Shown: in pieces, positions 15,619 through 60,920 of the stretch
How positions within the stretch are numbered: position 1 is the first letter of the stretch
Layout: each line of letters opens with the position of its first letter
From: Euryodendron excelsum
Taxonomy: Eukaryota; Streptophyta; Magnoliopsida; Ericales; Pentaphylacaceae
Length of the DNA: 64,000 nt
Direction of reading: 5' to 3'
Assembly (NCBI GenBank): GCA_033060915.1
Contig: CM065378.1
Location: 9,122,001 to 9,186,000 of the forward strand
Notes under the pieces: generated by a model
The model's database searches: none
What the model saw: the letters and a program-made list of their open reading frames with translations, nothing else
Told to the model about the DNA's origin: nothing
Position numbers and translations under genes: made by a program

Positions 15619-15620
15619 AT

Positions 15621-24165: not shown

Positions 24166-24179
24166 ATATATTTATCACC

Positions 24180-24583: not shown

Positions 24584-24643
<60 letters not shown>

Positions 24644-27584: not shown

Positions 27585-27853
27585 GTTTTTTATCAGCAAA
27601 AGAAAGAATTTCATTAAGGGAGAAAAAGGTACAAAGAGGACATCACTGAGATGGGGAACCCAATCAAGCCAGGCCAAGAAAAGAGAAAAAGGTTGGCAAG
27701 GGACCAACTTAGAAAAACCTAGAAGGGATGGAACATTTGAGACTTCTAACAACTGTGATATTATAGATGAAATTGCTGAGTACTGTAGAATTTTTCACAA
27801 TCCAGTTATAGTGCATAAGCAGAATACCAAAAATTATAATCTGATTAGTAGAG
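27585..27853 (-). mobile_element. LINE fragment: 3' UTR and tail
   Basis: The reverse complement reads TTGATTGGGTTCCCCATCTC, then CCTCTTTGTACC, then CCCTTAATGAAATTC, a common 3' end of plant LINEs, followed by an A-rich tail. It is interrupted at 27853 by the start of repeat R1 (TGATTACAC). A 157-codon plus-strand frame over this region is accidental. Confidence 0.7.
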
Positions 27854-29370
27854 TGATTACACCCGAAAAGTATAATCATAAGCCGTTAATTCACACTTTG
27901 TTAGACTTAGATTGTAGTTAATTGTCTTAATTTAGTTTCATATTTGATTTATTGTGTTTTGTGTGTGCTTTGTAGGTTTTAGGAGCTAATAAAGGCAAAT
28001 AGATGCAAAAAATGATTAAGGCGGGTTCAAAACAAACAAACCGGGGATGAGAAGTCAAACCTGTGTCGGTATTTTGGCCATAACTTTTTACTCCGATATC
28101 CAATTGAGTTGAATTTTGCATCATTAAAAAGAAGACTTTAAAGTCTACAACTTTATCTCTAATGTGCATCAACTGAATCAAGCTCTAAGGTGGTCAAATC
28201 AAGTTTCAAAGTTTCTGAGTTGAATAGTGATGAATAGTACCCGTCCAAACGGTTATTGTTCATCGGACAGTTACTATTCAGCCATCCGAACAAGGCGTTC
28301 GGACGCACTTCAGACGGCCATCAAACGCACCGTTTGAACAGTATTCAGACGGTTACTATTCATTTAGATTACATTTTTTGCGTCCGAAACTGCATTTTTA
28401 GGATTTTTTTTGTAAGTTTTTTGAGTAGTTAAGGTTAGTTTGAGATAGAGGGGCGGCGGGAGAAGCTCCAAGAAGATTACTTTTTATATTTTTCTTCATT
28501 TTTAGCTTAGATTTAGCCTTGTAGTTGTAGTATTTTGTTAAAACTTGTAATTTTTCTTCATTGTAATGTATTTTTTTTCATTTTCTTGCATTTTCTTGTA
28601 CTTTCCTTGTAATCAAACACTTCTATTCCTCAAGTAAAATTTAGATTTAATTCCTCATGCCTTTTCTTTACATTTTATATGTTTTTCTAATGGATTCAAG
28701 TAACTAAGAATTTGTATTGGGTTTAAATGTGAAAATCACCCAAGAAATCCAAAAGTTTCAATGGAGGTATCTCATGTATTAGTTGTCATATTTTCTCAAA
28801 TTTTAAATTCCTAGTAATTCCATATGGATGTTTTAGAAAATCTAGATTATTGACTAAGTTTGGGGACTTTCATCACCCAAATTGATAGTATTAATTTAGG
28901 AATTTTTACTAAAAAAGATCTCCACAATTACTAGGAATTAATTCTTATCAATTGATTGTAAGATAACTTAAAAAACTTAGGTTATTGACTATGTTTGGCT
29001 AATCAATGCACGAACCACAAATTTGGTATTGACTAAGTTAAATCGATGGTATTAACATTTGATTCCCCATTGACCATGTGTCTAATTTCAATTGCTTGAG
29101 AATAATTGGTTTTTAAAGTTAAATCTCCCAAATCAAACACTCTTAAATGTTGTGTTTGTTTTGAGTTATAAATCCCATTAAAAGTCTTGGATGGATTGAG
29201 TGATTGGTGTAAGCACCCCATTTTTGTCCGCTTGGCAATCTCCGAGCTGACCAAGCTCACTTTCACACATCACATGCATATTTAGACTTTAAGCCCATCT
29301 TTTTAACTTGAATTTAGTCCACCAGTAGCTTCTCAGGCCCATAGGGTCCACTTGCACTGGGGGCATCATT

Positions 29371-33024: not shown

Positions 33025-33050
33025 GGTAAGGGAATTTCGGGACGAAATTC

Positions 33051-33067: not shown

Positions 33068-33648
33068 TGTGAAACCCTAATCTCATATTTTTATAATTAG
33101 TTGAATTGCATCATAAACATAGTTAAATTGGTTTATTTAATTTAATTTACATCTATTGCATGGTTAATTATAAATTGTGTGTGTCACTTGTATTTAAATG
33201 GTGAAACATTGGTGAGTGGGTATAATAAGTAAATGTATAAAATACCTAAAATATAATAAGTGGGTGTATAAAATACTAAGGGGGGTGAGATATATAGTAT
33301 TATGTTTCTATTGAAGTTAATTGAGAGGAAGGGAGGGTGTCGGTGGAGAGAAAGGGAGAAAGATGACAAGAGGGGACAAGAAGGCAAATGAAGAAAGAAA
33401 AGGAAGAAAAAAAAGAAAGGAAAAAACAAGAATGGTGGGGAGTGAGTGGTTAGCATGATGGGAGGGAGGGAGAAGAGAGGAAAGATAGCTGCCATTATAG
33501 AGAGAGAGAGAGAGATATAGAGTTATAGAGAGAGAGAGAAGCTTGAAGAGAGAAGGAGCAATCGGTGGAAAAGAGAAAGAAGAAGGAAAGAAGGGAAAAA
33601 TCTAAGGAAGCTTTCTTGCACTTTGTTTTCCTCATCTAAGGTGAGTAT

Positions 33649-35403: not shown

Positions 35404-37329
35404 AGTATCATGCTTGTTTCATCTTATTTTCTCTAATTATTACATGTTGTATGAATCATGCCATGGAAGGAAGAGGATGGAGGTGAGATCTTCCATGGTA
35501 AAAATTTAGAATCACCCATGGCAGCCCTAACAGAGTATGCTCTATGAAAATGCTACTGTTTAGAGACATTTCGACCTAGCTAAAAATTTTATTTGTGGCT
35601 GAATTTTTGAACACTATAAGTTAGAGTTATGAGGATCATTTGGGCTTTGGATTCACTTAAAAATGTTGTAATTTCGAATTATGGGGAATTTTTGAAATGG
35701 GACTGTCCCTGCAGATTTTTGATGCCCAGATCTGTAACCTCTGGTTTAACAGAGCATTCGACCAAGTTAGAGTAGCCCAAAAATTATGAAATTTTTACTG
35801 TATCTAGGATAAAGGTTGATGATAATCTGTACCAAATTTCAGATCATTTAGATGTCGTTTACCTATGTTATTAATTTATCAAAGATAGACTATTTACTGC
35901 TGAATTCGAGTTTCTGCAGCACTGCCCTGTATTTGAAAATACCAAATAAATACTTAGGCATGTTCAAAAAATGTACAATTTGGTCTGGATACTCTTTGAT
36001 ATGTCTAGTTGGTATTTCTAAAGTTTTAGAATTTTTGGGCATAAGCCCACGAAGTTATGTCCAGATTATGAAGCCTGTGTCAGGTTTGGCAGATTAGAGG
36101 ACTTGATGTATTTTGGTATTTTTCAACTCTAGCTTTACATTGGGAGTGTGATTGAGATTAGCATATGGTAGTTCTAATGTATAATTTCAGTGTTATAACT
36201 TGTTTGTGTAGACATTATAGCTATGATTATCGGAGTATACATTGAGTTTCCTAAACTAATACGGTTGTGGTGATAGGAGCTAACGGAGAGCAAGATTCTT
36301 CAACGTCAACCCCGAAGTGATCTTTGACATAGTGTGTGTGCGGTGACAGGTGGGATCATAGGATAATCTTATTCATATAGAAGTGAATATATATATTGCT
36401 TGTGTTATTATCTATTTTGGTATTAATTGTGGAATTATGAGATTTTGAGATAATCTTATTCATGTTAAATGCATTGTGAATTTTTTATATGTATAATGGT
36501 GGTGAATGCACATGAGGTGTTGAAGGTGTTTATATATGAGGTGAAATTGGTATTATATGAGAAGTTCTGTGGAGACATTGATGATTTTATATACATGGTG
36601 GCATTGCATACCATTCATATTGTATGCCTTGCATTGCACTGGAGAGAGTTAACCATGGTGGGTTAACCAAGGCTTAGTCACGGTGGACTAGCCTAGGGGT
36701 GCCACGGTGGGCATTCCTTGATAACGCGCCATCGATATATTGGGCCAACGTTATCTAAAATTGCGCGCACGTGTGGGTGATACATGCATTGCATTGAGAC
36801 ATCCATGATATAGATATATATTAATCATTTCTACCTGTATGCATTTGAGTGCTTATTATCATTCTTTATGAGTTTGATTATCTGTCGTGAGCATGTTGAC
36901 AATTAGCTCACACCCACACAGACTGTCTTGACAGGTAACTTGGAGATAACGGTTTGGTTCACTGCAATCTTGGTTCTTGCCGTGGTGGCAATCATGTCGA
37001 TGTCAGGATGTCAAGTCACGGGGCTTGGGACAGCTTCATTGTCTTACTTTCAGTTTCATGGTTGTATTTTATATAGACGTTGGGTTTTGGTATTATGTTT
37101 TAACTTTGTATAATGGTAAAGAATTTTGTGAAAGGATGTTGATTATTTTCAAGTGGTAATGTATTCCTTTGGAGAGTTTATTATATTTTCCTCATTGTAT
37201 TGTTTATTCCACTGCGTTCTTTTATTTTTGAGTATGGGTTAAGGTGTCGTTCGCAGGTACGGTGACCTATGCGATCACGCCTCACCTAATGTGACATAAT
37301 TAATGTCTAATTGGGTTAGGGGTGTGACA

Positions 37330-38000
37330 AAATGACCGTTTTGTCCCTGGGCATTCGAATGCCCCGGGAACCACACTTGCTCTAGGTATCAAACCAGTAA
37401 CCTTCTGAGATTACCTTGAAGCTAAATGACCGTTTTGTCCCTGGGCATTCGAATGCCCCGAGAACCACACTGGCTCTGGGTATCAAACCAGTAACCTTCT
37501 GAGATTACTTCTTATGGTATTCTCAACCTTCCTCTACCTTTCCGGATCATTCCGAGTCAGTTCCGGCCAACCCGGTACAAAATGACCGTTTTGCCCCTGG
37601 TGGGCCGGTCTCCTTTTTCGACCACACTGGCTCTGGGTATCAAATCGGTAATCCTCTGAGATTACTTCTTATAGTATTCTCAACTTTCCTCTATCCTTCC
37701 GGATCATTCCGAGTCAGTTCCAGCAAACCCGGTGCGAAATGATCGTTTTGCCTCTGGTGGGCCGGTCACCTCTTCTGACCACACCGACTCTGGGTATCAA
37801 ATCGGTAACCTTTGGAAAAATTCTAAATAATATTTCCAAATCCCAAGTCTTCTTCCGGGACAGTCCAAATCCATCCCGGCAGCTTCCCGATCCGATTGAC
37901 CGTTTTGCCCCTAAAGGCCCGGTCAACCATTCCGACACATTCTATCCTCACTTTTCAAGTCAAATACCTCTGGGACACTATTCTAAGTGTTCCTGCTCTT
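37330..38000 (+). repeat. Tandem array with ~155-bp period in the L LTR
   Basis: The phrase AATGACCGTTTTG.CCCTGG recurs at about 37331, 37427, 37579, 37737 and 37896, each followed by ACCACAC.GGCTCTGGGTATCAAA and then by a CTCAAC.TTCCTCTA and TTCCGGATCATTCCGAGTC block. The first unit is shortened to about 96 bp. A three-unit version is found in the other copy at about 44738, 44893 and 45051. Confidence 0.88.
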
Positions 38001-38171
38001 TTTCAGCCTTTCGGGCCATTCCCGGTCCCTTAAATCATTCCCAGACTTTTCGGAGTCACTCTCAATAAAGCCAGGCTAAAAATTACATGGTAGTCACTAG
38101 TACAGGCACCCAAATCTAGTCAAAGATATGTTGCTTGCTGACCTTAAACATTTCCTAAATGGCTGGCACCA

Positions 38172-38216
38172 CTAGTAGTGGCGCCAAGCCAAAAAATGGC
38201 TTGGCGCCACTTCTAG
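38172..38216. promoter_or_regulatory. 19-bp-stem hairpin upstream of the L LTR TATA box
   Basis: Arms 38172-38190 and 38198-38216 pair with one mismatch around a seven-base A-rich loop; the inner 14 bp (AGTGGCGCCAAGCC) is perfect. Two further GGCGCCA-type sites follow before the TATA box. The other LTR copy keeps only a degenerate version (about 45300-45365). Confidence 0.8.
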
Positions 38217-38277
38217 TGGCGCCAGTGTAAAGTTTGACTTAGCGCCACTGCAACAGGCGCCAGTGTTGTCCAACCTC

Positions 38278-38285
38278 TATAAATA
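38278..38285 (+). promoter_or_regulatory. TATA box of L LTR copy 1
   Basis: TATAAATA, conserved at the equivalent position in copy 2 (45413-45420), sits in an otherwise CG-containing context. It implies transcription of the parent element in the plus direction and a U3/R boundary about 30 bases downstream. Confidence 0.65.
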
Positions 38286-38879
38286 CAGAGCGTCTTCCAA
38301 CGTGAAAAAGATCCGTCAACTCAAACAAAAAATCATATCATTCGATATACAGAGCTCGAGCACCTCCTAAACCTTAGTTTCCCTAGGTTTTCCAAACCCT
38401 AGCCACCATACACTAAACCTTAGTCCTCTATACACTCATACACACCCCCATACACTCATACACTAGCCTTCAACCCTCCTTCGAAGATTTGAAAAGTTGC
38501 AATCTGAAGTTTGAAGATTGAATACCAAGACTAAGACGAAGACTGAAGAAAGCAAGGCGCGCAAAATAAACAAGATACAAGATAGGTTCTCTATTTAAAT
38601 TTTCGCACTTCCCCCCTCTCTCTTTTCTCTCCTAACCCACTTGGGTTTTCTCTATTTTAATCCCCCATCTCTTTCCCCCCCCCCCCCCTTTCTTTGCATG
38701 CTTGAAACAAGGGGACTCCCGGTCCATGTGTAGGATTAGACTATTAGAGAGTCACCATGTCGGGGGCTTTCTTCTAGTTTAACCAGAGACCACGTGGGTC
38801 CGGCCCCCCTTGATTAGGTGGTGAAGCCTTAGCCTTGTATATTCACGACCCCAAAATTGCATTGTACATATCATGATCT

Positions 38880-41270
38880 TGCATCTTCAGAAAATCGTTT
38901 TCAAAAATCATTTTCAAACTTGTTTTCAAAATTGCATCAAATTTCTCTTTTTCAAAACATGTTTTCAAAATTACAATCCTAGGATGATTCTAGCCTTTCC
39001 ATGGCTAGGATTTCTTTAGGAAAGTGTTACATTCAAAGTGACCAATATGGTCCATATTTTCAAATCTTGTTATTTTCAAAACCGTTTTCCTAAAGTGGTT
39101 CTAGCCTTTTTATAGTTAGAATCGCTTTAGGAAAGTGAGATCTTTTGCATCTTCTAAAAAACTCTCCTTTCAAATCCCTCTTCCTCAAAATCTCTTTTTC
39201 AACATACTTTCCTAAAACTCTCCTTTTCAAAGTTGTTTTCAAAAACTCCCTCCCAAAATCTATTTTTCAAAACTCTCTTTTTCAATTTCTTTTCAAAATA
39301 CTCTCCCCAAAGTCCACTTTCTAAAAAACGTTCCCTAGGTCTCTTTCCTAGAAAAACTCTCCCAAAAATCTTTCTAAAAACTCTCTTTCCCAAAATCTTC
39401 CTTCTAGAAATTCCCCTCTAGAATTTTCCTTTTCAAATCCACATTTCCAAAAACACACTTTCTAAAAACTCCTTTTCTTTAGAATCTTTTTCCAAAAACT
39501 CTATCTTCAGATTCACTTTCTAAATACTCCTCCCTACGATTCCCTTCTAGAAAATCTTCGTTTTCATAAACGCACTTTCCAAAAATCCTTTCTCTTTAGA
39601 GCCCAAATCAAACCCTAGAACTCACAATTAGGAAACCCTAATTTTCTTTCCAAAAACATGATTTTCAAATTTTGCCCCAAACCTAGGTTTCCAAAACCTC
39701 TTGTTTTCACATCCAAACTATACATGTTTCCAAAACCTGTTTTCTACGTCGAAACTATAATTTTTCAAATCTAGGGTTTCTAGAATCTCCCTTTCCAAAT
39801 CCTTGCCAAATCCTATCTTCCCTTTAGGAAAACCAAATCAAATATTCCCGTTTAGGAAACCAAATCCAATCCTCCGTTTTTTTAAACAAAATCCAACCTT
39901 TTCTTTTAGAAACCAAATCCAATCTCTTCCTAATCCAACTCTTTCATAATTCAACTCCTTCCTAATCTTTCACTTTCCTAAATCTTAAGTTTCCAAAGCT
40001 TGAACATAAAATCTTTCCTAAATTTTAAAACTCAAAATCTAAATATTTCCTAATTCAACTCTCTCCTAATTCTCACCTTCCTGAATCATAAGTTTATCAA
40101 AACTTTCAAATCTTTTCTAATTCTACCCTTTCCTAATTCTAGCCTCTTTTCAAATCTTAACTTTTCAAATATAAGCTTTCAAACCTTCTTTAAACTCAAA
40201 CCTTTCCTAATCTTAAGATTTTCTAAAACCCTAAAACTTTCTAAATCTTAAACTTTTTAAATCTCAAATCTTTCTAAATTCAAAACTTTCTTAAGTTAAA
40301 ACTTTCTAAATCTTAAACTTTCTAAATTTCAAATCTTTCTAAACTCTAAACTTTCCTAAAACTTCAAAACTTTCTTAATACAAAACTTTCTTCAATTGAA
40401 ACTTTCCTAATTCAAAACATTTCTAAACTCAATACTTTCCTATTTCAAAACCTTTCTTAAAACTAAACTTTCCATTTTCAAAACTTTCCTAAGTTAAAAC
40501 TCTCCTAATTCAAAACTTTCCTAAAATAAAAACTTTCCTAATTTCAAAATTTTCCAAAAATGAAACTTTCCTAATTCGAAACTTTCCTAAATCGGACCTT
40601 TCCTAATTCGAACATTTCCTAAAATCCAATCTTTCCTAAATCTTCCAAAATCTTTCCAAATCCAACATTCAAGCCTAATCTTCCTTAAACTTCAAGTCTT
40701 TCCTAAATCCTGTGTTTCCTAAGTCTAGGTTTCCTAAACCTTCGTCTTTCCAAAACAAGTTTAAATCTTTCTTCCAAGTTCTATCTTTTCAAATCAAAAT
40801 TTAACCTTCTCAATTTCAAGATTCTAAATTCTAATCTTCAATATTCCATTTTAAGTTCAATCTCTCAATCTTCCAATCCAAATTCCAATTCAACTCCTTT
40901 TTCAAATCAAACATTTTATTTTCAATCGGACTCTTGTCCGAACTACAACTGACCTGATTCCTCCAAAAGGATACGTAGGCAACCTTCATAAGTGCGGTCA
41001 CAATTTCTTTCAAATTTCAAATTCCTCCATATTTTTCAAATTTCAAATTCCAAAATCTTTCCAAATCTCCAATCTATTTTCAAATTTTCAATTTTAAATT
41101 TTTATTTTCAATCTTCAATTTTGATTTCCAAAATCTTGTTTCCAAATTCAAACTTCCATCTCTTTCTTTTCAAATCAAATCAAATCAAATTCTTTTCAAA
41201 TCTATTTCTAAATCAACTCTCTTCTATTGCACTTGCATATCATGTATCATGTTAGTTTCCTTTCAAACAT
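38880..41270 (+). repeat. G-depleted low-complexity region of the L LTR
   Basis: About 2.4 kb composed almost only of A, C and T on the plus strand, built from variants of TTTCCTAA, TTCAAAACT and CAAATCTTT. The equivalent region 45960-48050 in copy 2 has the same composition but different sequence detail. Non-coding. Reading frames within it are by-products of the biased composition. Confidence 0.85.
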
Positions 41271-42115
41271 TCTTTTTCAAAGTGGATAGGACGGGTCAAT
41301 AGTTAGTTAAAGACTCTCATAGCTGAATCTAAGGTAGATCGACATGTAGGTACCGAAAGGGCGGGGTAGGGTGATGGCTTAGTGCGTCTTCCCTACACGT
41401 AACCAACCTCCGAACCTAGAATCACTGATTTCAAAGACCAAAAAGGAGTTATTTTTCAAAAAGGGCTAAATGTTTTCCAAAGGTTGCCAAACAACCTATT
41501 TTCTTAAAAACCCTCTCTTGAGGAGATATTTTCAAAATCGTTTTCCAAAAACCCTAAGTGTAGTCTCCGGATTATTCTTAGTTTTTAGGTGACCTAACTC
41601 ACCTTAATCAAGTTAGGTGGCGACTCCAAATCTTTTTCCAAAAGCCCTTTATTCAAATCTATTTTCAATTCAAACTTAATCGCACTCATTCTTCTAGGAG
41701 GGTGAATTCTAACGAGAGAGTATAGCGTTTTTTCGCTTGTGTGAGTATTCCTCAAGTACAAAAAATCCAAGCGACACAATTGGATCAGTTGAACCCAATT
41801 CCTTTTTTAATTGTTTTAATTTAATTGTCTAGTGTTAATTGTCTTTATTTTCATTGCAATAGTTTAGGAATTCAAAACAACCTAAAAGATTTTCGGTCTT
41901 TTTATTTTCCTTTTTATTTTAGATCCAATTCCTTTTTTTATTGTAATTCAATCCTAAGTTAGGTTAGTGTGAGGTGAGTGTTAGAGCCTATATTTGGTTA
42001 GGTCCCTTGAGAGAGAACGATACCGATTTATACTTCATCGCGACCCCCGTACTCTTGCGGGGTACTAACTCCAATTGTAGGAATACCGCAACCAATTAAG
42101 GAGGAGAGACCTACT

Positions 42116-43008
42116 ATACTCCCAACCAATTAAGGATAGAAACCCAGATAAGCCAAGAGATCTTGCATCTTAAAAGCAAGTGATCAGAGGATTCAATCTC
42201 TTCTATACACAGAGCACATTTTAGGTTAGAATCAGTAAAAAGAACACCCCTATAAAGAAGCAAGTCTGTAGTATATATTTTCTTTTGTAAAGCTAACGAT
42301 CCAAAAACTTATACTTTACGAGAAGTAGCATTCCCCCATACATAGAGATTGGACTAGCTAGGTAATCCCATAGTTTTTTGAACTGAATTACAGAAAGAAC
42401 TAACAAAAAAGATTTTGAAATGAACACCTTCCCGAGATAAGGAGTCACCTTTATTTGGGATTAGGCTACAAGAATTGAGCATGCTAATGAGCGTTTTGAG
42501 TTCTTCACTTTGCTAAGCTCTAATATTCATTTCGAAATGCAAACACCATCTAGCATATCCTTTTGGCTGAAACACATCACTGATCAGATCCTGTTGATTT
42601 AATGACAGAGAGAATAGCTTAGGAAATAACTCAGCAAGCTTTATTTTGCAATGAACCTGGTTCTGGGCCTGACTCTGGGTGAGCAACAACCAAGGCTCAA
42701 GCCAGAATTGGGTAGCATTATCATATCCAATGCTGATATGTAAGTTTTCCGTTAGTACCTTACTGAAAACATCAGCACCAAACCCATATTGGGTGATCCC
42801 TTTCCAAATGTCAAATATTTTATGGAATGAGGAGTTATGGGGGAAGCCATCTAGAGTTGTCCAAATTGTATTTGCTATAAATAACTCTCCTCCAAAGAGG
42901 ATTTTTTCCAGATCCAAATCTCCACCACCATTTAGCTAGTAGAGCAGCATTCATCATTTGTAATGGTTTGATTCCTAGGCCCCCATGGTCCTTACTTGAT
43001 GAGACATT
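42116..43008 (-). pseudogene. LINE fragment: C-terminal region after the RT
   Basis: From 43008 downward the minus strand encodes GGLGIKPLQMMNAALLAKWW, then WRFGSGKNPLWRRVIYSKY, a typical post-RT region of plant LINE proteins. After a frame change it continues at 42917-42513 (KGITQYGFGADVF, QFWLEPWLLL, KLAELFPKLFSLS). It stops being recognisable near 42.2 kb. The Athila element is inserted at its upper end. Confidence 0.8.
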
Positions 43009-48550: not shown

Positions 48551-49470
48551 AAAAGATCTAGATTTTAATTACCAAGAATATAAAAGCAATCCATTCCACA
48601 TTAAGATTAAGATCCTTAGGTCCCTACCGGATATTTGAATATAAAAATATATCAAACAGAGGACCCGCATAAATTATACAAGTCTCTAAAAAGTGATAAG
48701 TAAACCAACAATTACGTTACTTTACACTACTCCTATATTAATTACAATACTCCTAAACTTAAATTTGTTTACAAAACACAAAATTATTACGTGCATAAAA
48801 TATACGTGCCTGTGCCCGTGCCCATGTATGCAATATACTAAACGTATGTAAAAATACTAAGTTTTTGAATAAATTTGAAATGAAAAGACAAATCTTAATT
48901 GATCATCCAAATACTGTCACGTGAACTTCATAATTGGTTTCAAGAATAAAACTAGCTACTCATGATAATAAAAATATATAATTTGAAAGATAATGACTTC
49001 ATAAATAAAAAAGTTTATTATAACAAAATAATGGTAAAGAAAAAACTGACTGAAAAATACTAACAAACTAACTGTAAATCTACCCCTGAAAATGAAATAA
49101 CTAAATGTGGAGCTCCTTGGCTTTGAACTTCCTCTCCGGTCAAGCTCTCTCTCTAGCTCTCCTCTGAAGCTCCTCTTCCTCTCCATGACTCTCCTATTTA
49201 TAGAAGATGAAAAGAAATTATTATTATTATATTATTTTCTTTTTTTATTTTTTAATTACACCACTAACTTATATATATATATATAATACCACCCCCGAAT
49301 AAATGTATGCGTGTCTGGCGGCTTCATTTTACTCGATTTTAACTTCAAATCTGTACAAGACACAAAAAATAAAGAAAACTAAGTTTTGCATTAAAATGAT
49401 AAATATATAAATATTTATTTATACTAACTTATAATTAGAGACTCTGAGTGTACTTTTTAGAGTACAATCA

Positions 49471-51757
49471 CACCCTTCAACTAAGCTTTTGCTAGTCCCT
49501 AGCAAAATAATAAATACACTTAAAAAGATATGTTCCACTTTTGTAGGAATTACGATTGCATTTAGCATATGCACCAACCCTTTACACTCCTAAGTTACCC
49601 TTAGTGGACGGGTGGTGTCTCACGAAAGTTTCCAGTGATGATACCCACAAACATCAAAATGTAGCCTGCAAGTGAGGATAATGAGAAAAAATATTACATG
49701 TATCAAAACATAAGCATATTTTGCATATCGTACTCGTTAATACACAAGTAAAATAATGTCTTAAAACAATATGTGAGAGGTTTCTGTGTGTGTTGTGATC
49801 ATTACATGATAAGAAAAGTATTATAACATTAAAACATAAATACATCCTTTAATATTTGATTCAATCTTACTGGATATTCTCTCAGAAAGAAAGAATATAG
49901 GCATCTCACACCGGTTGTCTTTGTAAAAGAGTAAATGTAATGAAAAATCAAAAGAGACAACCATAAAGAAAATGACGTCAATATATAAAGTGAGAGACGA
50001 CTTAGCATAGCTCCATAAAAAGAATGCTCAATACTAAAATCACACAAGCAATTGATAAGTGAATTTTATAAGCAATAAATGAACAAGCCATGTACACATC
50101 AAATCCTTGAGTACTTTATTCAGGTTGTAACTTGGCCATGAGATTTAAGGTAAGGAGAAAGAAATGATAAATGGCTCAAAATATGTGTGATCAAAACATG
50201 AAATGATCAAGAAATACATACTTTTAATTTCTCAATTTCATTTGATTTGATACGAATGTTTTTTTTTCTATTTCTTCTTTTTTATTTATTTATTTTTTAT
50301 ACTTCCCTACTTTCGTACTTTCTTTTCTACTTTTTTTTTTCATCGTATTGCAAATAGGTTATCCCCTTTTCAATTCAACTTGCACAAGTGAAGATACTTG
50401 TATTATCATATTTAAGGATAAACCTTTAGTAATGATATATGTAGCAAGAGACAAAGAAACATGCTTAAAGATGGTTACAAGGGAATTACATCAACAAAAA
50501 AATATGTGGCTCAAAAAAACAAAGATGACCTTGATTCATTTTTTAAAGTGCATAGTAACTCAGAGTTCTAAGAATTCAACATATTCAATTACTATAGCAA
50601 TTCAAACAATTGAGTCAAATATAATTATAATGGAGCTATTGAGAAAGTGATATGGAAGAAATTCATTAAGAGTAAATGTAAACACTCCGAAAGGCGTGAT
50701 TGACTTTAAAGCTCACTTGGTGAAAAATCTCCACTTTTGTAAGGATAAAACTGTACAATATGTAAAAATACTAAACTTATCATGATATAATAATAAGTGA
50801 TGTAAAATAGCCTCTTTATATGTGTTAAGTTAAAATCTTGTAATTGTATTAAAAAGAAAGGATAAAACAAAATTTGTGCTAAGGTGAATGAAAACATGTT
50901 TCAACAAATTCTCAAAATCTATATTTGCATTTCACATAAAACTGTACAAAATTATAAAAGATATGTAAACATCTTTTGTAGATCTCAAGTGCATTCAAAT
51001 TGTACGCTTCTCGACCTTGTGCATGTTTTTTTTTTTAAACGTACAAAACATCTGCAAAATAAATGTTAGTCATATTTACAAATAAAGATAAACACACAAA
51101 TAAAACACTCAAACATAACACACTCTAAGAAGATTAAACATTATAAAGTCGAGCCAGACTTCTGACATTGAGATAGTCTACTGTTCTGATGATTCTAAGG
51201 CGTTTCAATGCCTCAACATTTACTCGTACTTTAATAATTATCTAGGTAAACTATCTGATTCCCTGACATCAGTCGGTTACTCCCTTTACAATTTTTATCC
51301 ACACACGTGTGTCTAGCACAACGGTGACACCTATTTAGTCTCTTTTCTCTTCTCCTACAAGCCAGAGTACTGCAACCAGTAAAAAGTTGAGGTTATTCCT
51401 CTTGGAACTCAACTCTCCTTACCATCTTTGCACGGCGAATTATCTCGCCTCTGATACCAAATAAAAATATCCGAAAGATGCAATATGCAAATGTAAGGAC
51501 TCGACTGTCTATATAAAAAGTCATGACACTATCCAATTCTTTAACGTCTATTGGTCATAAAAACAAAATTATAGAAATTAATAACACAAATTTCAAAAAA
51601 CGAATGTTATCTCCCCCTCCCCCCAAACTAGAGAATGGCCACGTCCCGAGGTGTAAAAGGAAACAAAGGGTAGGAAGGAACAAACATGAGTAGGGAACAA
51701 AGTATTCTCCCCAACTATAAAAAATTATCCTAACTATACAAATGCGGGGTGTTACCT
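49471..51757 (-). other. Post-pol segment of the Athila element, no intact env-like gene
   Basis: 2.3 kb between the end of integrase and the 3' LTR. In Athila elements this holds an env-like ORF; here only short AT-rich frames occur and I recognise none. 49471-49485 (CTTAGTTGAAGGGTG on the minus strand) is the probable polypurine tract at the LTR edge. A second, stronger purine tract lies at 51611-51630. Confidence 0.55.
51611..51630 (-). other. Internal polypurine tract downstream of integrase
   Basis: The minus strand reads TAGTTTGGGGGGAGGGGGAG, about 130 bp after the integrase stop. It resembles the typical Athila polypurine tract (TTTGGGGG) and is stronger than the one beside the 3' LTR. 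Confidence 0.5.
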
Positions 51758-53200
51758 CTATTCAAGCAATGGTGGATCCATGAGATTCACATTTTCAACT
51801 AGATTGGCAAAGTTCTCAAGGTAAGGCTTGAGATGATGCCCATTAACTTTCAAGATATTTCCATTCCTAGGATCCTTAATTTCAATTGCCCTGTGTGGTG
51901 ACACATCCCTTACCAAATAGGGTCCAGACCATTTACTCTTTAACTTACTCGGAAACAAGTGTAATCGGGTATTATAGTGGAACACTCTTTGACCGATGAA
52001 AAAGAATTTACGCACAATACGTTGGTCATGGAATGTTTTCATCTTGGCCTTATAGATTTTTGCATTCTCATAAGCGTCATTTCGAAATTCTTCAAGTTCA
52101 TTGAGTTGTAGCTTTCTTACTAGGCCCACCTCATCCAGACTTTCATTGAATTGGCGAATGATAGTCTTTGTGCTCAATTTTTACCGAAAGATGACACGAC
52201 TTTCCATACACAAGCCTATAAGAAGAAGCACCAAACATAATTTTATATGCAGTTCGATAAGCCCAGAGTGTATCAACTAACCTTAAGGACCAGTTCTTGC
52301 AGTTAGGATTGACAGTTTTCTCAAGAATATGCTTAATCTCCCAGTTAGCCAACTCAACTTGGCCACAAGTTTGGGAATGATAAGGTGTACTAACCTTATA
52401 AACAATCTCATACTTTCTTATTAACATTCCAACATGTCTATTGCAAAAATGAGAACATCCATCGTTAATGATAGCACGTGGCATATCAGAGCGTGAAAAG
52501 ATATGCTCTTTTAAGAACCGAACCACTGCACGGTGATCATTAGTACAGGAGGCAATGGCCTCAACTCATTTAGACACATAATTTATGGCCACAAGAATAT
52601 AAAGGTAACCAAACGAACTAGGAAAGGGTCTCATGAAATTGATACCCCAACAATCAAATATCTCAAGAATAAGAATGAGAGTAAGGGGCATCATATTTCT
52701 TCTAGACAGACTCCCTAGTCGTTGACATCAATCACAAGTCGTACAAAAGGTATGAACATCACAAAACATGGTAGGCCAATATAAACTAGATTGCAGAATC
52801 TTTGCAACTGTCTTTTTGGAACTAAAATGGCCACCACATGCATGGGAGTGACAAAACTCCATGATAGAATGAAACTCATTGTCGGGAACACACCGACGAA
52901 TTATTTGATCAGGACAGTACTTGAATAAGTATGGATCATCCCAGGAAAAATATCTCACATTTCTGAAAAATTTTCTTTTATCCAAATAAGACCAATGTGA
53001 TAGAATTTTTTCGATAGCCAAAAAGTTGGCAATGTCAGCAAACCACAGAGTGGTTGCGTGAGAAAGGGCTTGGATTTGAAAAAGATACTCATCTGAAAAA
53101 TGCTCATTGATATGTAGAGTGCCTTTGGCATCCCCTTCAACAGAGAGCCGTGACAAATGGTCAACAACAACATTTTTTACCCTCTTTTTATCTAGAATTT
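51758..53200 (-). pseudogene. Athila integrase, inactive
   Basis: Zinc-binding N terminus at 53156-52728 (FHSIMEFCHSHACGGHFSSKKT, shown only in part: HSHACGGHF and FCTTCD). Catalytic core at 52526-52143 (PRAIINDGCSHFCN with the second Asp, YHSQTCGQVE with the Glu, LWAYRTAYK). The C terminus is at 52177-51758 (FNESLDEVGL, KWSGPYLVRDV, NGHHLKPYL). The first catalytic Asp region (52530-52720) is broken by stops. Frames change at least twice. Confidence 0.85.
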
Positions 53201-53228
53201 TAATGTGGAATTATTGTAACAAAAGAAT

Positions 53229-54751
53229 CTAACAGATGATACATGGTTTTGTATCAGGCTTGGTTAACAAGTACTTTAGCGTAGAATGATCAATATAAAT
53301 GATGAGTAATGACCCTACCAAGTATAATCGAAAATTATCTAATGCAAACACAACAGCAAGAAGTTCTTTTTCAGTTGTGGTATAGTTCATTTGGGCTTCA
53401 TTCAAAGTTTTGCTCTCATAATATAGCACATGAGATTTCTTATTCACTCTCTGCCCTAAAACCGCTTCTATAACGTAAGCACTAGCACCGCACATGAACT
53501 CAAAAGGTAAAGACCAATCGGGTGATCGAATGATAGGTGCAGTTGTTAAAAGCCCTTTGAGCTTATCAAAAGCTTCTTAGCAATCAGACGTCCATTTAAA
53601 TGGAAAATCTTGACACAATAAATGACACATTGGGCGGGAGATAGCACTAAACCCTTTTATGAATCGTCGATAGAAACTAGCGTGCCCAAGGAAAAAACGA
53701 ATATCTTTCACAGTTCTAGGAGCAAGTAGTTTTTGAATTAGTTCAACCTCGGTTTTATCTACTTCAATCCCCTTGCTAGACACAATGCGTTCAAGCACTA
53801 TACTTTGTGTCGTCATGAAGTGGCACTTTTCGTAGTTTAGAATAAGGTTACTATCCTTACATCTCATCAACACCTTCTTGAGGTGTACCAAACAATTTTC
53901 ATAAGTATCTTTATAGACTGAGAAATTATTCATAAAAATCTCCAAAACTCACTTCTTCATATTACTAAAGATACTCATTATGCATCTCTGAAAGGTGGTC
54001 GGTGCATTGCACAAGTCAAAGGGCATTCTTTTGTAAGCATAAGTACCAAAAGGATATCTGAATGTTGTCTTATCTTGGTCTTATAAAGCAATTTCAATTT
54101 GGTTGTAACTAGAGTACCTATCCAAAAAACAGTAAAAGGCCCGACCTGCCACTCGTTTTAAGACTTGGTCCAAGAACAGGAATGGAAATTGGTATTTTCT
54201 AGTAATAGCATTTAGTTGACGGTAATCAATGCACATGCGCCACCCAATTTGAATCCTAGTGGGCACTAGTTTATTTTCTAATTTTGAATTACCGTGACTC
54301 TAGATTTTTTTGGAATAACTTGGGTTGGGCTAACCTACTTTGAATCAGAGATGGGGTATATAATACTCAAATCGAGAAGCTTCAGTACTTCTCTTCTCAT
54401 AATTTCTTTCATGTTGAGGTTCAGACACCTTTGCATTTGACGAACTGGTTTAGACTCCTCTTCAAGATATATGCGATGTATGCATACCAAAGGACTAATA
54501 CCATGTAAGTCTACAATGGTACACCCTAAGACTTTTTTATAATTCTTTAGTATTTCCACTAGACTCTTCTCTTGGCCTTCAGACAAGCTAAATGATATAA
54601 CAACAGGATAAGACTCACCTTCACTAAGAAATGCATACTTCAAAGAAGATGGCAAAGGTTTCCTCTCAGGGGTGGGTGCTTTCTGTTCAGAAAGCATAGG
54701 CTTGATAGCACTAGGGACTAAAGGTTTAAAAGATGAGATCCAGTGACCCAC
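53229..54751 (-). pseudogene. Athila reverse transcriptase and RNase H, inactive
   Basis: 54751-54335: protease-RT linker (NYKKVLGCTIVDLHGISPLVC, partial motif DLHGI). 54266-54081: GWRMCIDYRQLNAITRKYQF and YSSYNQIEIAL. 53945-53577: EIFMNNFSVYK, where the family has MDDF; both catalytic Asp are Asn, so polymerase activity is lost. Then NYEKCHFM and SSKGIEVDK. 53495-53229: RNase H with NYTTTEKELLAVVFAL and IYIDHSTLKYLL; the first acidic residue (family CDAS) is Gly (CGAS). Stops and frame changes separate these pieces. Confidence 0.88.
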
Positions 54752-54769
54752 TTTTATAAAGTGCTTGCT

Positions 54770-55460
54770 TTTTACCCCTTTAGGGATTGTAACTTAGTCT
54801 AATTGGTCATTTGACTCACTCAAAGCAAAAGTTTTGTCAATAGGATCTTTGAGAAACTTACTCTCAACGTAATCTTGAACCCTCAAAGCAAGTCTATTTC
54901 ATCAAAATCATTGTGTTCCTCAAATTACTTTCTAATCGACAAAATGTTCATCTCAACGGTCATATTCCCGAATGACAGTTTTAACAACTCATTTCTATAA
55001 TGAATTATGGTATTATATGTAGCTAGAAATAGTCATCCTAAGGTCACAGGAAGTTGGGAATGAGAACTAGTGCTCATAATTGGTTCTGCATCTAAAATAA
55101 TAAAGTCTATTGGGTAATAGAATTTATCTCTCTGAATGAGAACATCCTCCACAATACCCCTTGGGATCTTAATAGACCTATCAGCTAATTGCAAGGTTAC
55201 TCTTATAGGACGAAACTCACCTAATCTGAGTTGTTGGTAAACAAAATAAGGGAGTAGGTTAACACTTGCTCTTAGATCAAGAAAGGCTCGATCTATCTTG
55301 TATCCTCCTATGGTACATGATATAGTAGGACAACCAGGGTCCTTATACTTCAATGGGGTTTTATATTGCAAAATTGCACTTTGGCTCTTATTCATGAAAG
55401 CAGTTTTCTTGACATGCAATTTCCTTTTCATAATACAGAAGTCTTTTAAAAACTTGGCAT
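54770..55460 (-). pseudogene. Athila aspartic protease
   Basis: 55431-55033 encodes DPGCPTISCTIGGYKIDRAF, then LDLRASVNLLPY where the family has DLGAS, and IKIPRGIVEDVLIQ. Gly next to the catalytic Asp is replaced by Arg. The following segment down to 54770 is broken by stops. Confidence 0.85.
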
Positions 55461-55470
55461 AGGAAGGAAT

Positions 55471-57370
55471 CTACTTGATAGCATCTAGGATTAGAATGTT
55501 GAGTTTGACTAGGTTAAATACTTTGTAAATTTCTGAATTTAAAAGTTCGTGTTTACGCTTGGTCAACCTATGAGGAAATGGTGTATATTTCTCAATATTA
55601 TTGTCATCTCCTTCAAATGCTTTAATTAGCTCTAAGATTGGCTCAACTTTCTTTTTATCTTTCACACTTCTATCTTTCTCTCTCTCTTCCTCTACTTTTT
55701 CTCTCTCTTGCTCTATCTCAACTCCCTTCTCTTCATCTCTATCCTTAAAAGCGTCTTTCACAGATGGAATGGATTTATTAATGATCTTACCGCTCCTTAA
55801 GGTTGTGATGGATTGGACTTGTTCATGACTAAATTGAGGATCAATCCTCACTTCAATCATATTCACTTGCTTATTGGAAATTGGATTTAATTGGGGTTGA
55901 GATAGAAATTTTCCCGACACTTGGTAAGTCAAAACTTATGTTAAAGTAGACATTTGCTTTGTTATGTCCTCCAACAGTCTAGTGTGTTAGTCTAACATGT
56001 TCTCCTCCTGATCCACGTTATTTTTCATCTCTCTTACATCATTGGTCAACTAGTACACATTGTCTTCTAGCAGTCTCTTATCAGGAGGCTAATGTGGAAT
56101 GGGTTGGGGTGGAAAAGGTTGAGAATTTTGTGGTTCTCCTTGGAATGTTTGAGGATTCGAAAACCCCACATTATTCCACCTAAAATTTGGGTGATTTATC
56201 TATCCACAATTGTATGTGTTCGAGAAAGGGTTTCCTCTAACTTGTTGGTCATTATACATACCCTGATATTAACTAACTACATTAGCTTGACCATACAAGC
56301 CTATGGTATAACTGGACATGCAGCAGTGTCATGACTCAATGTACCACACATTAAACAACTCTTTTCTCTAGAAGATTCACTATTCACAACATTGACTCTT
56401 TTAGACTCCAGGACCTCCAATTTTTGGATAAGTGCAGGAACTCTAGCATTCAAATCATCTATTTCATTAAGCTAAAATATTACCCTAGGCTTTGACTCGG
56501 GATTTTGGGTTCCAGTTGTGGCCCAATCTCTAGCAAAGTTTGCTAAGTAATCAAAGTAGTCAAATGCCTTAGCAGGCGCTTTGTCATACACAGTTCCTGC
56601 ATACAAAGACTCAACAAACTGTTTAAGTTATGGGGTCAATAACGAATGTAAAGTATTTATGACATGCCAATTTGTAAATCCGTGATGTGGACAAGCATTC
56701 AACAAGTCTTTGAACCTCTCCCAATATTGGAAGAACGAATCACTAATTATGGGAGCAAACTGAGAGATTTGGCGATGAATTGCCTTTGTTTTATGCTCAG
56801 GAAAAAACTTTTTCAAGAACTCCATCTGAAAATCTTGTCGTGAATGAATAGACCTAGGCCTCAATGAATTGAATTATGTCTTAGCCTTTTCTTTTAGAGA
56901 AAATGAAAATAGTTTCAGAAGTACTATTTTCCTTTAATAAGAATTATTCAAGAACATAGAGCATACATTCTCGAAATCTTTGATATATTGATATCATTTT
57001 TCGAAATCCAAACCATGAAATGGATTTATCAGCTGGATTATTCCCGACTTTAAGGTCATCGCTGCGTGATGCGCGAGAAGAACAATACAAGAAGTAGGCG
57101 TTTGCCCAGTAGGATTCAGATAATCCATAAGAGATTTATGGGGAGAATCGCCATGTACACTTCCACCTTCAGGTACATTATTTGGATTTAACGGGTTGAG
57201 ATTCACAGGAGGTGGATAATCAAATTCTTCCACCATTGGGATAGGAGTAGGAGCTCAGTTAACTAACTAAATGTTTGGAACAGGAATCCCAAATGGGAAA
57301 AAAGTATGATAAGTGGGAGAAATATCACTAGAAGAGTCAACGCTCACCAATCGTCCATGCACATCCCTAA
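55471..57370 (-). pseudogene. Athila gag
   Basis: 57236-56994 carries the N-terminal Pro/Asn-rich part (PPPVNLNPLNPNNVP) and LKSGIIQLINPFHGLDFEK; 56864-56628 carries the capsid region (FLKKFFPEHKTKAIHRQISQ, YWERFKDLLNACPHHG). 55932-55471 contains SITTLRSGK and an unusually Glu/Lys-rich charged stretch, then TPFPHRLTK. Several stops and frame changes. The start is probably near 57370, but stop codons obscure it. Confidence 0.82.
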
Positions 57371-58133
57371 TGAATTATTTCATAAAAGTGTACGTACCTT
57401 ATAAAAACACAAATTAACCATTTCCGAAACATCAACACGATAAAATATTTATAAAATAAAATAAAAGAAAAAAAAACTACAGTAGCAAACTAAAATACCT
57501 GCACACAAAAACAACAAAACAAACAAAAGTTTATCCATTAGTAAAACATTAGTAAAGAGTTAGAGAGTTAGTAAATAGTTAGATGGTCACCACATCGAGG
57601 ATACCGACCTAAGTAGGCAGTGAATCAACTCGAGAAGTAAATCATAAAAAATAAAAAAATAAAATAAAAAACTGAAAGTAAAGTGCAAAAAGTAGTATGT
57701 TAGAATAGTAACCAAAGTAGATTATCCACTAAATAAAAGAAAATGTTAGATAGTTAGATGAAAAATAAAAACAAAAAATATGGTAAACAACTTGAATGGC
57801 TTCGTCTAACAATAGGCGATCATGACAACCAAAGAGGTTAACCACAATAAAAATAAATAATAATAATAATAATAAAAGAATTAAATATGTATAAATATAT
57901 AAGTTAGCAATGGAACGAAATAATAAGTTAGCATAAACCACTGAATAATAATAAAAGAATTAAATATGTATAAATATATAAGTTAACAATGGAACGAAAT
58001 AATAAGTTAGCATAAACCACTGATCAGTTGGTATACAATGTCCAATTCTCGTTAAGATAGAAATGCAATCATATGTCCAAAATCCACAGCAAATGTATTA
58101 TTATTTTATTTTCACATATTTTAATTAAGCTAT
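57371..58133 (-). other. Athila leader between primer site and gag
   Basis: AT-rich untranslated leader with a short duplicated block: AATAATAAAAGAATTAAATATG and the following AAATAATAAGTTAGCATAAACCACTGA appear at about 57870-57942 and 57945-58023. No gene. Confidence 0.6.
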
Positions 58134-58151
58134 TTTCCAACAACAACGCCA
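58134..58151 (-). other. Primer binding site of the Athila element
   Basis: The minus strand reads TGGCGTTGTTGTTGGAAA five bases inside the 5' LTR. It matches the family tRNA-Asp-type site TGGCGCCGTTGCCGGG with mostly C-to-T changes. Confidence 0.72.
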
Positions 58152-58156
58152 AAAAT

Positions 58157-59934
58157 TGCTTGTATTTTTCAATTATGGTGCTAAAAAGTACTTGTTTATG
58201 CCTAGATTGTGTAAATTTAAACACTCAAGTGCAAGTGCAGTGAAGTAGCAATTAAAATAACCCGGTAAAAATGGGGTCTATCTACAAGGAATGGAGTTCT
58301 AAATTATGTGAAATGTCATAGTTGCAGATGGTAGGTGCCAGAATTTACCCCAGGTAATGGATTAAATACAAACTAAGTCATACTAGACATAGAAGAGTCA
58401 CATACAACTTAAGTTGGAAGCTAAATCAACCGATTCGAATTTCACCTCTTGCTGACAAGATTTAAACAAAAATTACAGAAACAGTGACCAAAAGAAAAAT
58501 ATTTTGTTTTTGAGAGGTTTGATAATTGTTAAATTAGACTACAAAATAAACAAATTAAAAACAATATTGGATCCAATTAATCTGATCACGTGACTTTCTT
58601 GGGGTTAATCAATACAGGTTTACCATCTGTCAATCGTTTACCCCCTTGAGCCTCATAAACCAACAGATAGAAATATTCAATAATAACCAAATACTATAAT
58701 ATTACATTAAAATTATGAACTCTCATCATCGACTCATAAATACTAAATAATGCTTTGTCGGAGAATAAGTGTAACAAGTATAATTAAAGGCACATGTTTT
58801 CAAACGTTGTCGCTAAATACTTATTAAATTATTATTGAAAATCCTCACCACCGATTTGCATATACTGGCTGCTTTGTTAAGGCAAAAAATATTACAAACA
58901 TAATTAAAAATCTAAGTTTTCAAAAGGATCTAGATTTTAATTGTCAAGAATATAAAATCAATACATTCCAGATTATGATTAAGAATCTTAGGTCCTATCA
59001 GAGGTTTGAATATAAAAATATACCAGACAGAAGACCTGCATAAATTATACAAGCATCTGAAAAGTGATAAGTAAACTAGCATTTTGCATTACTTTATACT
59101 ACTCCTATATTAATTACGATGCTCCTAAACTTAAACTTGTTTGGAAAATATAAAATCATTACATGCATAAAATATACGTGCCTGTGCCCAGCTATGCAAT
59201 ATACCGAATATGTGTACAAAATACTAAATTTTCAAATAAATCTGTAATGGAAAGACAAACTTTAATTGATCATCCTAATACTGTTACGTGATCTTCACAA
59301 TTGATTTCAAGAATAAAACTAACTACTCATGATAATAAAAAGACATAATTTGAAAGAAAACAACTTCATAAATAAAAAAATTTATTACAGTAGAATAACA
59401 GTAAAGAAAATACTAAAAACTGACTGAAAAATACTAACAAACTAACTAAAAATCTACCCTTAAAAATGAAATAACTGAATGTGGAGATTCCTGGCTTTAA
59501 ACTTCCACTCCGCTGAATCTCTCTCTCTAGCTCTCCTCTGAAGCTCCTCTTCCTCTCCATAGCTCTCTTATAGAAGATGAAAAGAAAATTTTTATTATTT
59601 TATTATTTTAATTACACCACTAACTTATAAATATAATATCCACTAATACATATATAAATATAATATATATCCACTAATATAATATATTATATATATATAT
59701 TATAAATTAAATATTATATATATATATATATAATATAATACATCAAATTAACACTCGAATAAATGTCTGTGTGTCTGCCGGCTTCATTTTGCTCGATTTT
59801 AACTTCAAATCTGCATAAGACACAAAACATCAAAGAAAACTAATTTTTGTATTAAAATAATAAATAATATATAAATATTTATTTACACTAGCTTAGGATT
59901 AAAGACTCTAAGCATACTTTTGAGAGTACAATCA
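58157..59934 (-). repeat. 5' LTR of the Athila element
   Basis: 1778 bp. Matches the two halves of the 3' LTR and preserves the empty site of the family L insertion at 58911-58935. It contains an AT-dinucleotide-rich expansion at 59640-59750 and a CT-rich patch at 59515-59560. Confidence 0.9.
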
Positions 59935-60920
59935 ACCTTTCCCTAATTTACCAGATGTATTTTCTTCTTGTTGACGTTATCTCCTCATAAAAAGCCCCTC
60001 ATAAGCTTTTCTATCAACATTCTGACTTTAACAGGCATCTTAAATAAATAGAGGAAGTAGATAGAAAGATTAGCCAATGTGGATTTCGTAAGGTGATTCT
60101 GCCCCGATGGATAAGTGAGATCTTTTCCATCTTGAGAGAGTAATTCTAAATTTCTCAATGACACGTTTCCAGTTTTTCATGAGTTTTTAGTTGGATCCTA
60201 CAGGCATTCCAAGGTAAAACAGAGGTAACTTACCTATTTTGTAGTTAAACAAGGATGTAGCATTCTTCAATAATAAAGCATTGACCCCCACGCTACGTAC
60301 ACAGCTTTTATTGAAGTTTATTTTAGCATAGATAGAAGTTCATAGCACTTGAGAATTCTTTTCAAGTTCTTCATTTCAATAAGATTAGCGGCATTAAAGC
60401 AAATAGTATCGTCAGCTTGCAACTGAATGAGTGAAACTTCATCCCTCCCAATTTTAACACCATTCACCAAGTTAAGTTGGGAAGCTCTGTTAAGCAAAAG
60501 ATTAAGACCCTCTGCAACCATAATAAAAAGGAAAGGGGAAAGAAGGTCACCTTGCGTAAGGCCCCTTTCTACTTTGATTTCTTTGGCTGGGAACCATTGA
60601 CTAAGACAGAGATACTAGCTAAGGAAATACATTCCTTAATCCATTTGCACCACTTGCTACTAAAGTTCATTTTTGTCATCAACATAATCAAGAAGTCCCA
60701 ATTTAAGGAATCAAAAGTGTTTTCAAAATCTAGCTTTAAGGAAATTCCTTTAAACTTCCTAAACTTCCATTCATGTAGCACCTCACTTGCAATTAGAATC
60801 CCATCAGTAATATTCCTTCCTTTAATGACCTTTGCTTCCCTTTTAGCCGTTGAGCCCCTTAACATTGAGTTCGAAATACCAACAAGGTATTATTTGTCTT
60901 CCTAAGCTTGTGGTACTTAT
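59935..60920 (-). pseudogene. LINE fragment: reverse transcriptase
   Basis: 60865-60569 encodes the palm start: VIKGRNITDGILIASEVLHE, then SLKLDFENTFDSLNWDFL and ISVLVNGS. After a frame change 60521-60318 encodes VAEGLNLLLNRASQ and LIQLQADDTICF; the usual F/Y before ADD is Gln, while the Asp pair is kept. It continues, frameshifted, with GKLPLFYLGMPVG (about 60240-60205). The endonuclease domain is missing (5' truncation). Confidence 0.85.

What the first reader, a model, noticed from the sequence alone, without database searches (positions are those of the whole stretch)
27585..60920. Multi-layer nested transposons with a readable insertion order
A LINE on the minus strand is the outer layer. 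R1 copy A and an Athila element each split it. A long solo LTR (ATTGG duplication) sits in R1; a Tekay element sits in that LTR; a second R1 (AGTAT duplication) sits in the Tekay LTR. In parallel, another long solo LTR (AAAAG) sits in the Athila 3' LTR. That gives five levels on one branch, most with target duplications, and the same two families (R1, L) were active at different times.
Basis: seen in the sequence. Interest (0 to 1): 0.8.

Follow-up and report, generated by a model that had tools for sequence, protein, structure and literature searches.

The report
Six-layer nest of plant retrotransposons
A stretch of plant chromosome holds jumping genes that landed inside one another in a readable order, six deep on one branch; it is a clean example of an ordinary kind of plant genome structure.

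Summary
The nest is real. Other copies in the window's own genome served as empty-site controls. The outer layer is a minus-strand LINE, 27584-60828, with a target duplication of 15/16 bases. An Athila-type element (LTRs 43009-49470, 58157-59934) splits it; the LINE is collinear across that joint in 22 of 22 relatives holding both sides (29 examined). A solo LTR (L2) sits in one Athila LTR. That makes six levels: LINE > X > R1A > L1 > Tekay > R1B. One inferred deletion removed R1A's last ~17 bp, the rest of X and about 220 bp of LINE. Tekay lacks its 5' LTR and gag start. R1 is the LTR of a probably non-autonomous, Athila-like element. R1A-R1B and L1-L2 divergence do not date layers; only the Athila LTR pair dates an insertion (K about 0.154). 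Coding decay agrees with the order; nearest-copy identity broadly agrees. Nests up to 8 layers deep are reported in wheat, so this is ordinary.

The parts
27568..27583 (.). LINE target-site duplication, left copy (CCTTTGCTTTCCTTTT)
   Evidence: 15/16 match to 60829-60844; the right copy begins where 12 of 22 LINE relatives lose homology, 60826-60828
27584..27774 (-). LINE, 3' tail piece (outermost layer)
   Evidence: Homology of LINE relatives to the tail starts at window 27773 in 7 of 25 loci and within 12 bp of it in 15 of 25, those included
27775..27853 (+).
   Evidence: 39 other scored matches in the genome out of 468 first-look candidates; 10 of 10 fetched copies share this 5' boundary to within about 15 bp and run on for about 130 to >=700 bp
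27849..27853 (.). TAGAG, presumed left target duplication of R1A within X; right copy lost
   Evidence: 6 of 10 uninterrupted X copies read AGAG-ACTAAT here, 2 of them with TAGAG itself (L053, L059; by eye)
27854..29207 (+). R1A (solo LTR of an Athila-like element), left part
   Evidence: 35 of 39 other scored genome copies start at window 27842-27857; collinear with R1B
29203..29207 (.). ATTGG, left target duplication of L1
   Evidence: Exact repeat at 41779-41783
29208..29354 (+). L1 (long solo LTR), left part
   Evidence: 90-93% to L039, L040, L043
29355..33067 (+). Tekay-type chromovirus, 5'-truncated coding part (from the gag zinc knuckle on)
   Evidence: Pfam RNaseH, integrase zinc and SH3 domains above cut-off; rve and Chromo below cut-off; 84% to P0009, 3 stops, 0 frameshifts over 1139 aa
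33068..37329 (+). Tekay 3' LTR, split by R1B
   Evidence: Genome copies L047, L048, L049 run through the R1B site uninterrupted
33644..33648 (.). AGTAT, left target duplication of R1B
   Evidence: Repeat at 35404-35408; single copy in the empty site of L047, L048 and L049
33649..35403 (+). R1B, innermost layer (solo LTR)
   Evidence: 37 of 39 other scored genome copies start at its first base, two at its third
35404..35408 (.). AGTAT, right target duplication of R1B
37330..41778 (+). L1, right part; begins with a 94-bp tandem duplication at the Tekay edge
   Evidence: L039, L040, L043 (3 of 7 fetched L copies) read from the L1 left part straight into ...CTTGAAGCTAAATGACCG
41779..41783 (.). ATTGG, right target duplication of L1
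41784..42092 (+). R1A, right part; last ~17 bp missing
   Evidence: Collinear with R1B to about 42090; LINE homology resumes at 42093 in the closest relatives
42093..43008 (-). LINE, middle piece (RT C-terminal part, zf-RVT), ending in target copy ACATT
   Evidence: Pfam zf-RVT 2.4e-9; relatives
43004..43008 (.). ACATT, left target duplication of Athila (one mutation)
   Evidence: Empty site in L010 and L011 reads AAGGT, i.e. ACCTT on the + strand
43009..49470 (-). Athila-type element, 3' LTR, split by L2
   Evidence: 86% to the other LTR
43763..43767 (.). AAAAG, left target duplication of L2
43768..48549 (+). L2 (long solo LTR, 4.8 kb) inside the Athila 3' LTR
   Evidence: Excision restores collinearity with the 5' LTR; 83% to the nearest genome copy over the stretch searched
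48551..48555 (.). AAAAG, right target duplication of L2 (one extra A at 48550)
49471..58156 (-). Athila-type internal region, decayed
   Evidence: Integrase zinc domain; RT piece, best-scoring database hit 70% identical; 2.5-4.2 lesions per kb
58157..59934 (-). Athila-type element, 5' LTR
59935..59939 (.). ACCTT, right target duplication of Athila (ancestral form)
59940..60828 (-). LINE, upstream RT piece, 5'-truncated
   Evidence: 12 of 22 relatives lose homology at 60826-60828
60829..60844 (.). LINE target-site duplication, right copy (CCTTTGCTTCCCTTTT)

Best explanation
This is a nest of retrotransposons built by successive insertions into earlier ones. A 5'-truncated LINE inserted first and duplicated about 16 bp of target. 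On one branch X (LTR-like), R1A, L1, a Tekay-type element and R1B then inserted one inside the other. On a second branch an Athila-type element inserted in the LINE, and L2 inserted in its 3' LTR. R1A, R1B, L1 and L2 are solo LTRs, inferred to be left by recombination between the two LTRs of once-complete elements. Two later deletions are inferred: one at R1A's right edge (its last ~17 bp, the rest of X, about 220 bp of LINE), and one that took Tekay's 5' LTR and gag start with roughly ten bases of L1. Shown: the order, the insertion points and five empty sites. Inferred: solo-LTR formation, the deletions, and that X is an LTR element.
For: Athila joint: the two LINE pieces are collinear in 22 of 22 relatives that hold both (29 examined), 17 with no length difference and the other 5 within 5 bp; the joint is in frame; 5 of the 8 protein relatives found were aligned and all 5 pass it without a gap; the empty site shows target AAGGT. 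R1B joint: L047, L048 and L049 read through with a single AGTAT; over the stretch printed L047 equals the excised sequence, L048 differs by one base beside the site, L049 by one at the far end. Tekay joint: L039, L040 and L043 read L1-left straight into L1-right. L1 and L2 joints: excision restores collinearity with R1B and with the Athila 5' LTR. X: 39 other scored matches; 10 of 10 fetched copies share the 5' boundary. LINE duplication 15/16, adjacent to the homology limit. Lesions per kb: LINE 4.8-9.3, Athila 2.5-4.2, Tekay 0.9. Nearest genome copy: LINE 80%, R1A 88%, L1 90% over its probe, Tekay LTR 97%, R1B 96%.
Against: R1A and Tekay have no paired target duplication. L1's right end carries 2 bp (CA) beyond the ending of its relatives, and L2's right duplication is offset by one A. 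The 3' part of X is missing, so its length and class at this locus are not known. Nearest-copy identity is not strictly in nesting order: R1B (96%) lies inside Tekay (97%), X (89% over 72 bp) is no lower than R1A (88%), and L2 is only 83%; such identities are not dates. In the left part of the Tekay LTR the three relatives are 91-93%. The RT core piece of the LINE had no Pfam match on its own. The Athila nearest-copy search did not complete.
Confidence: 0.95

Rival explanations
1. Five levels: R1A inserted directly in the LINE, and 27775-27853 is filler DNA or diverged LINE.
For: The segment is only 79 bp, and LINE sequence lies on both sides of the R1A complex.
Against: The 79 bp is the 5' end of a dispersed repeat. 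Homology of LINE relatives stops at 27773 in 7 of 25 loci and within 12 bp of it in 15 of 25, those included; in two more (L028, L029) the listed start at 27847 is a separate match to the X stretch on the other strand. R1A begins right after TAGAG in X.
Confidence: 0.04
2. X and R1A arrived together, or were pasted in as one piece during double-strand-break repair that also lost about 220 bp of LINE.
For: No paired duplication for X or R1A; LINE sequence is missing at the joint.
Against: X starts at its natural 5' end directly against LINE sequence, as expected of a true insertion, and one deletion at the right edge explains everything lost.
Confidence: 0.15
3. Part of the nest is an assembly artefact.
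For: The finding itself raises it; reads are not available here.
Against: Joints fall at natural element ends, most with target duplications, and empty sites match almost to the base. A chimaera would not do this repeatedly. The window lies inside a 59-Mb contig.
Confidence: 0.02

Closest known systems
Nested LTR-retrotransposon clusters of plants (bread wheat chromosome 3B, PMC4290129; passages seen)
   Same: Successive insertions, solo LTRs with target duplications, truncated elements; the passages report 30,199 nested insertions with up to 8 layers on one chromosome.
   Different: Smaller, and the outer layer is a LINE.
Order-of-insertion reconstruction as in REANNOTATE (PMC2672092; passages seen)
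   Same: Same logic: the nested element is younger; age from the LTR pair of one element only, with bounds for the elements nesting or nested.
   Different: Here empty sites were checked by hand against other copies.
Athila lineage (Ty3/gypsy)
   Same: The middle element and the complete R1 element share a GGGACTAGCAAAA stretch just inside the 3' LTR, and both have a primer-site-like sequence that resembles Athila's (sequences; the assignment is recalled).
   Different: The R1 element's internal region is about 3.9 kb and no pol was recognised in the one copy read.
Tat/Ogre-type elements with very long LTRs
   Same: L is 4.1-5.25 kb in four fetched copies read end to end; L040 and L041 continue into a GCGACTCC-type primer-site-like sequence (assignment recalled).
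   Different: No coding part of an L element was read.

Membership tests
LTR retrotransposon solo LTR (L1, L2) | TG...CA ends and 5-bp target duplication | tested here: met
   L1 ATTGG exact; L2 AAAAG with a 1-bp offset; relatives L039, L044 and L045 have exact duplications, by eye
LTR retrotransposon solo LTR (L1, L2) | Same sequence occurs as the LTR of a longer element | tested here: inconclusive
   L040 and L041 continue into a primer-site-like sequence, but no LTR pair was read
LTR retrotransposon solo LTR (R1A, R1B) | Sequence occurs as a direct pair flanking an internal region | tested here: met
   Pairs 5.2-5.6 kb apart, start to start, on C3, C10, C14 and C19; C14 internal region read
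LTR retrotransposon solo LTR (R1A, R1B) | 5-bp target duplication | tested here: inconclusive
   R1B AGTAT exact, with empty sites; R1A's right copy is lost
Tekay chromovirus | Ty3/gypsy pol order RT-RNaseH-integrase plus chromodomain | tested here: inconclusive
   RNaseH, integrase zinc and SH3 domains above cut-off; rve 23.1 bits against 32.6 and Chromo 21.5 against 25.1 are below. The clade name Tekay is recalled, no tree was made
Athila | Ty3/gypsy pol on the minus strand, LTR pair, tRNA-Asp-type primer site | tested here: inconclusive
   LTR pair and pol pieces met; primer site decayed and its identity recalled
Plant L1-type LINE | RT with C-terminal zinc domain, A-rich 3' tail, variable-length target duplication, 5' truncation | tested here: met
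   zf-RVT (the RT core piece alone had no Pfam match), LINE-like relatives, duplication 15/16, truncation near 60828
X as LTR element | TG start and precise 5' boundary | tested here: met
   10 of 10 copies share the boundary to within about 15 bp; TG[T/C]TGGGGACT read exactly in 4 of 10 (by eye)
X as LTR element | LTR pair, internal region, target duplication | not tested
   Pieces of homology between two fetched stretches cover about 1.35 kb; the 3' end was not established

The most novel reading that the evidence does not exclude
The locus keeps a six-step insertion record on one branch, including a layer reduced to 79 bp that can be recognised only by genome-wide comparison. The same LTR family (R1) appears at the third and the innermost step, so repeated waves of one probably non-autonomous family could be ordered at this locus and at others.
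Probability: 0.85. Interest if true: 0.25.

Novelty: new member of a known kind. Interest (0 to 1): 0.2.

Why it matters
It is a clean, checkable teaching case of reading transposon history from nesting, with empty sites for three joints from other genome copies and for two more within the window. It also shows two traps: dating by divergence between different family members, and overlooking a layer worn down to a few dozen bases. It opens no new biological question.

Tried and rejected
A first LINE duplication candidate (27529/60885) was dropped: in the stretch tested, equal or better scores arose in 16% of shuffles and 21% of background windows. My first reading that L1 had lost about 815 bp beside Tekay (relative to L2) was wrong: L1's close relatives L039, L040 and L043 lack that stretch too. 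LINE continuity across R1A was tested and is not clean (208-228 bp missing against six of the seven relatives that break at 27773; the seventh, L023, has its tail inverted, so its figure means nothing), which led to X. A paper search for L in Ericales listed two papers, neither opened. The one long ORF of the R1 element's internal region had no Pfam match. Row left out of the lesion counts: the LINE tail, which matched only 18 residues. Nearest-copy identity of the Athila LTR was asked and never answered.

Full report
What was claimed and what is there. The finding describes a LINE split by an R1 repeat and an Athila element, with further insertions inside each. Self-comparison of the window and reading of the joints show all the pieces. 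The LINE is on the minus strand. Its own 16-bp target duplication (27568-27583 and 60829-60844, 15 of 16 identical) starts where relatives in the genome lose homology: 60826-60828 in 12 of 22 relatives, 60815 and 60823 in two, earlier in eight. In a scan of 9136 overlapping windows the match score was reached in 30; apart from the two copies themselves these lie at 17522-17550, 26363-26391 and, near the left flank, 27455-27483.

The genome as control. The window lies at G000:C2:9122001-9186000 of a 1.06-Gb genome in 39 contigs, so uninterrupted copies could be read. For the Athila joint, 29 LINE relatives were compared. All 22 that hold both pieces are collinear, 17 with no length difference and the others at -2 to +5 bp. 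Relatives L010 and L011 read AAGGTCTC at the site, so the target was AAGGT. The window keeps it on the right (ACCTT on the + strand) and has one change on the left (ACATT). The joint is in frame, and the five protein relatives aligned, of eight found, pass it without a gap.

The second branch. R1A starts at 27854; 35 of the 39 other scored genome copies start at 27842-27857. It was expected to touch LINE sequence there. It does not: LINE homology stops at 27773 in 7 of 25 relatives and within 12 bp of it in 15 of 25, those included. In six of the seven, 208-228 bp of LINE lie where the window has none; the seventh, L023, is rearranged. The 79 bp in between (27775-27853) belong to another dispersed repeat, called X here: 468 first-look candidates, 39 other scored matches. 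Ten of ten fetched copies start at the same place to within about 15 bp (TG[T/C]TGGGGACT exactly in four) and run on for about 130 to at least 700 bp; two further stretches share pieces covering about 1.35 kb. No other match to X was found in the window at E 1e-5. R1A follows TAGAG; six of ten uninterrupted copies read AGAG-ACTAAT there, two of them with TAGAG. So R1A lies in X and X in the LINE. A single deletion at R1A's right edge would account for R1A's missing tail (about 17 bp), the missing rest of X and the missing LINE stretch; the deletion is inferred.

L1 splits R1A with the ATTGG duplication, and excision restores collinearity with R1B. The Tekay-type element lies in L1: L039, L040 and L043, three of seven fetched L copies, read straight through the site; L044 and L045 are of the longer, L2-like form, and L041 and L042 have no match to L1's left part. 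Tekay's left side has lost the 5' LTR, the start of gag and about ten bases of L1, so no paired duplication is left. Compared with L2, L1 seems to lack some 815 bp here, but its close relatives lack it too, so this is a subfamily difference. R1B splits the Tekay 3' LTR with AGTAT; L047, L048 and L049 show the empty site with one AGTAT, at 98% identity over the 1.5 kb right of it and 91-93% over the part left of it.

Ages. Only the two LTRs of one element started identical. For Athila K2P is 0.158 and 0.151 in the two parts, about 0.154 together (my arithmetic). At a rate of 1.3e-8 per site and year (recalled, rice) that would be near 6 million years; for slow-evolving woody plants several times more. 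The species is unknown, so I give no date. R1A-R1B (0.24 and 0.20) and L1-L2 (0.43) measure the split of subfamilies, not insertions. Lesions per kb of coding sequence follow the nesting: 4.8-9.3 in LINE pieces, 2.5-4.2 in the Athila RT piece and 0.9 in Tekay. These values depend on the relative used, and the Athila piece was chosen around an open frame, which biases it low; the LINE tail, with only 18 matched residues, was left out. Nearest genome copies are 80% (LINE, full probe; 81% and 87% for shorter matches), 89% over 72 bp (X), 88% (R1A), 90% (L1 probe; 95% for a shorter match), 97% (Tekay LTR), 96% (R1B) and 83% (L2). This is broadly but not strictly in nesting order, and such figures are not dates.

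What the parts are. R1 is the LTR of an element about 7 kb long: pairs lie 5.2-5.6 kb apart at four places, and the C14 copy has a 3.9-kb internal region without a recognised pol. Its GGGACTAGCAAAA stretch before the LTR is shared with the window's Athila element. L is the long LTR of another family, with solo copies bearing exact duplications at L039, L044 and L045. The clade names Tekay, Athila and Tat/Ogre rest on recall and domain content; no tree was made.

Standing. Wheat chromosome 3B alone has 30,199 reconstructed nested insertions with up to 8 layers (PMC4290129, passages), and the logic of ordering and dating nests is published (PMC2672092, passages). This nest is a good new example of a known kind.

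Noticed in passing
34025-34133: A 109-bp near-perfect palindrome inside R1B (95% to its own reverse complement). All 39 other scored R1B-like genome copies show the same inverted match; no such match was reported for R1A.
   Followed up: partly
37330-37508: A 94-bp tandem duplication of L1 begins exactly at the Tekay 3' edge; L039, L040 and L043 do not show it in the stretch printed.
   Followed up: partly
L050 (G000:C14:29157700-29161900): Internal region of an R1 element: about 3.9 kb, a 166-aa ORF without Pfam match, no pol recognised; probably a non-autonomous Athila-like family.
   Followed up: partly
L044 and L1: L044 and L1 are both flanked by ATTGG although the surrounding sequences differ.
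   Followed up: no
L028 and L029 (about 3070-3133): Both LINE loci carry an X-like stretch on the other strand a few hundred bases past the LINE tail.
   Followed up: no
43780-45300 (query): The L family gave 22,337 first-look candidates in the genome, the most of the seven probes answered.
   Followed up: no
6406-6905 and 15617-16115: 500-bp direct repeats, 86% identical, flanking ORFs that look gypsy-like (recalled; no Pfam hit): probably another LTR element outside the nest.
   Followed up: no
24177-25310: Two exon-like stretches of a C2H2 zinc-finger gene that looks like the WIP family (recalled; the first exon alone gave no Pfam hit), the only likely host gene I noticed near the nest.
   Followed up: no
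57865-58023: A 79-bp tandem duplication, 98.75% identical, in the otherwise decayed Athila element: probably a recent local duplication.
   Followed up: no
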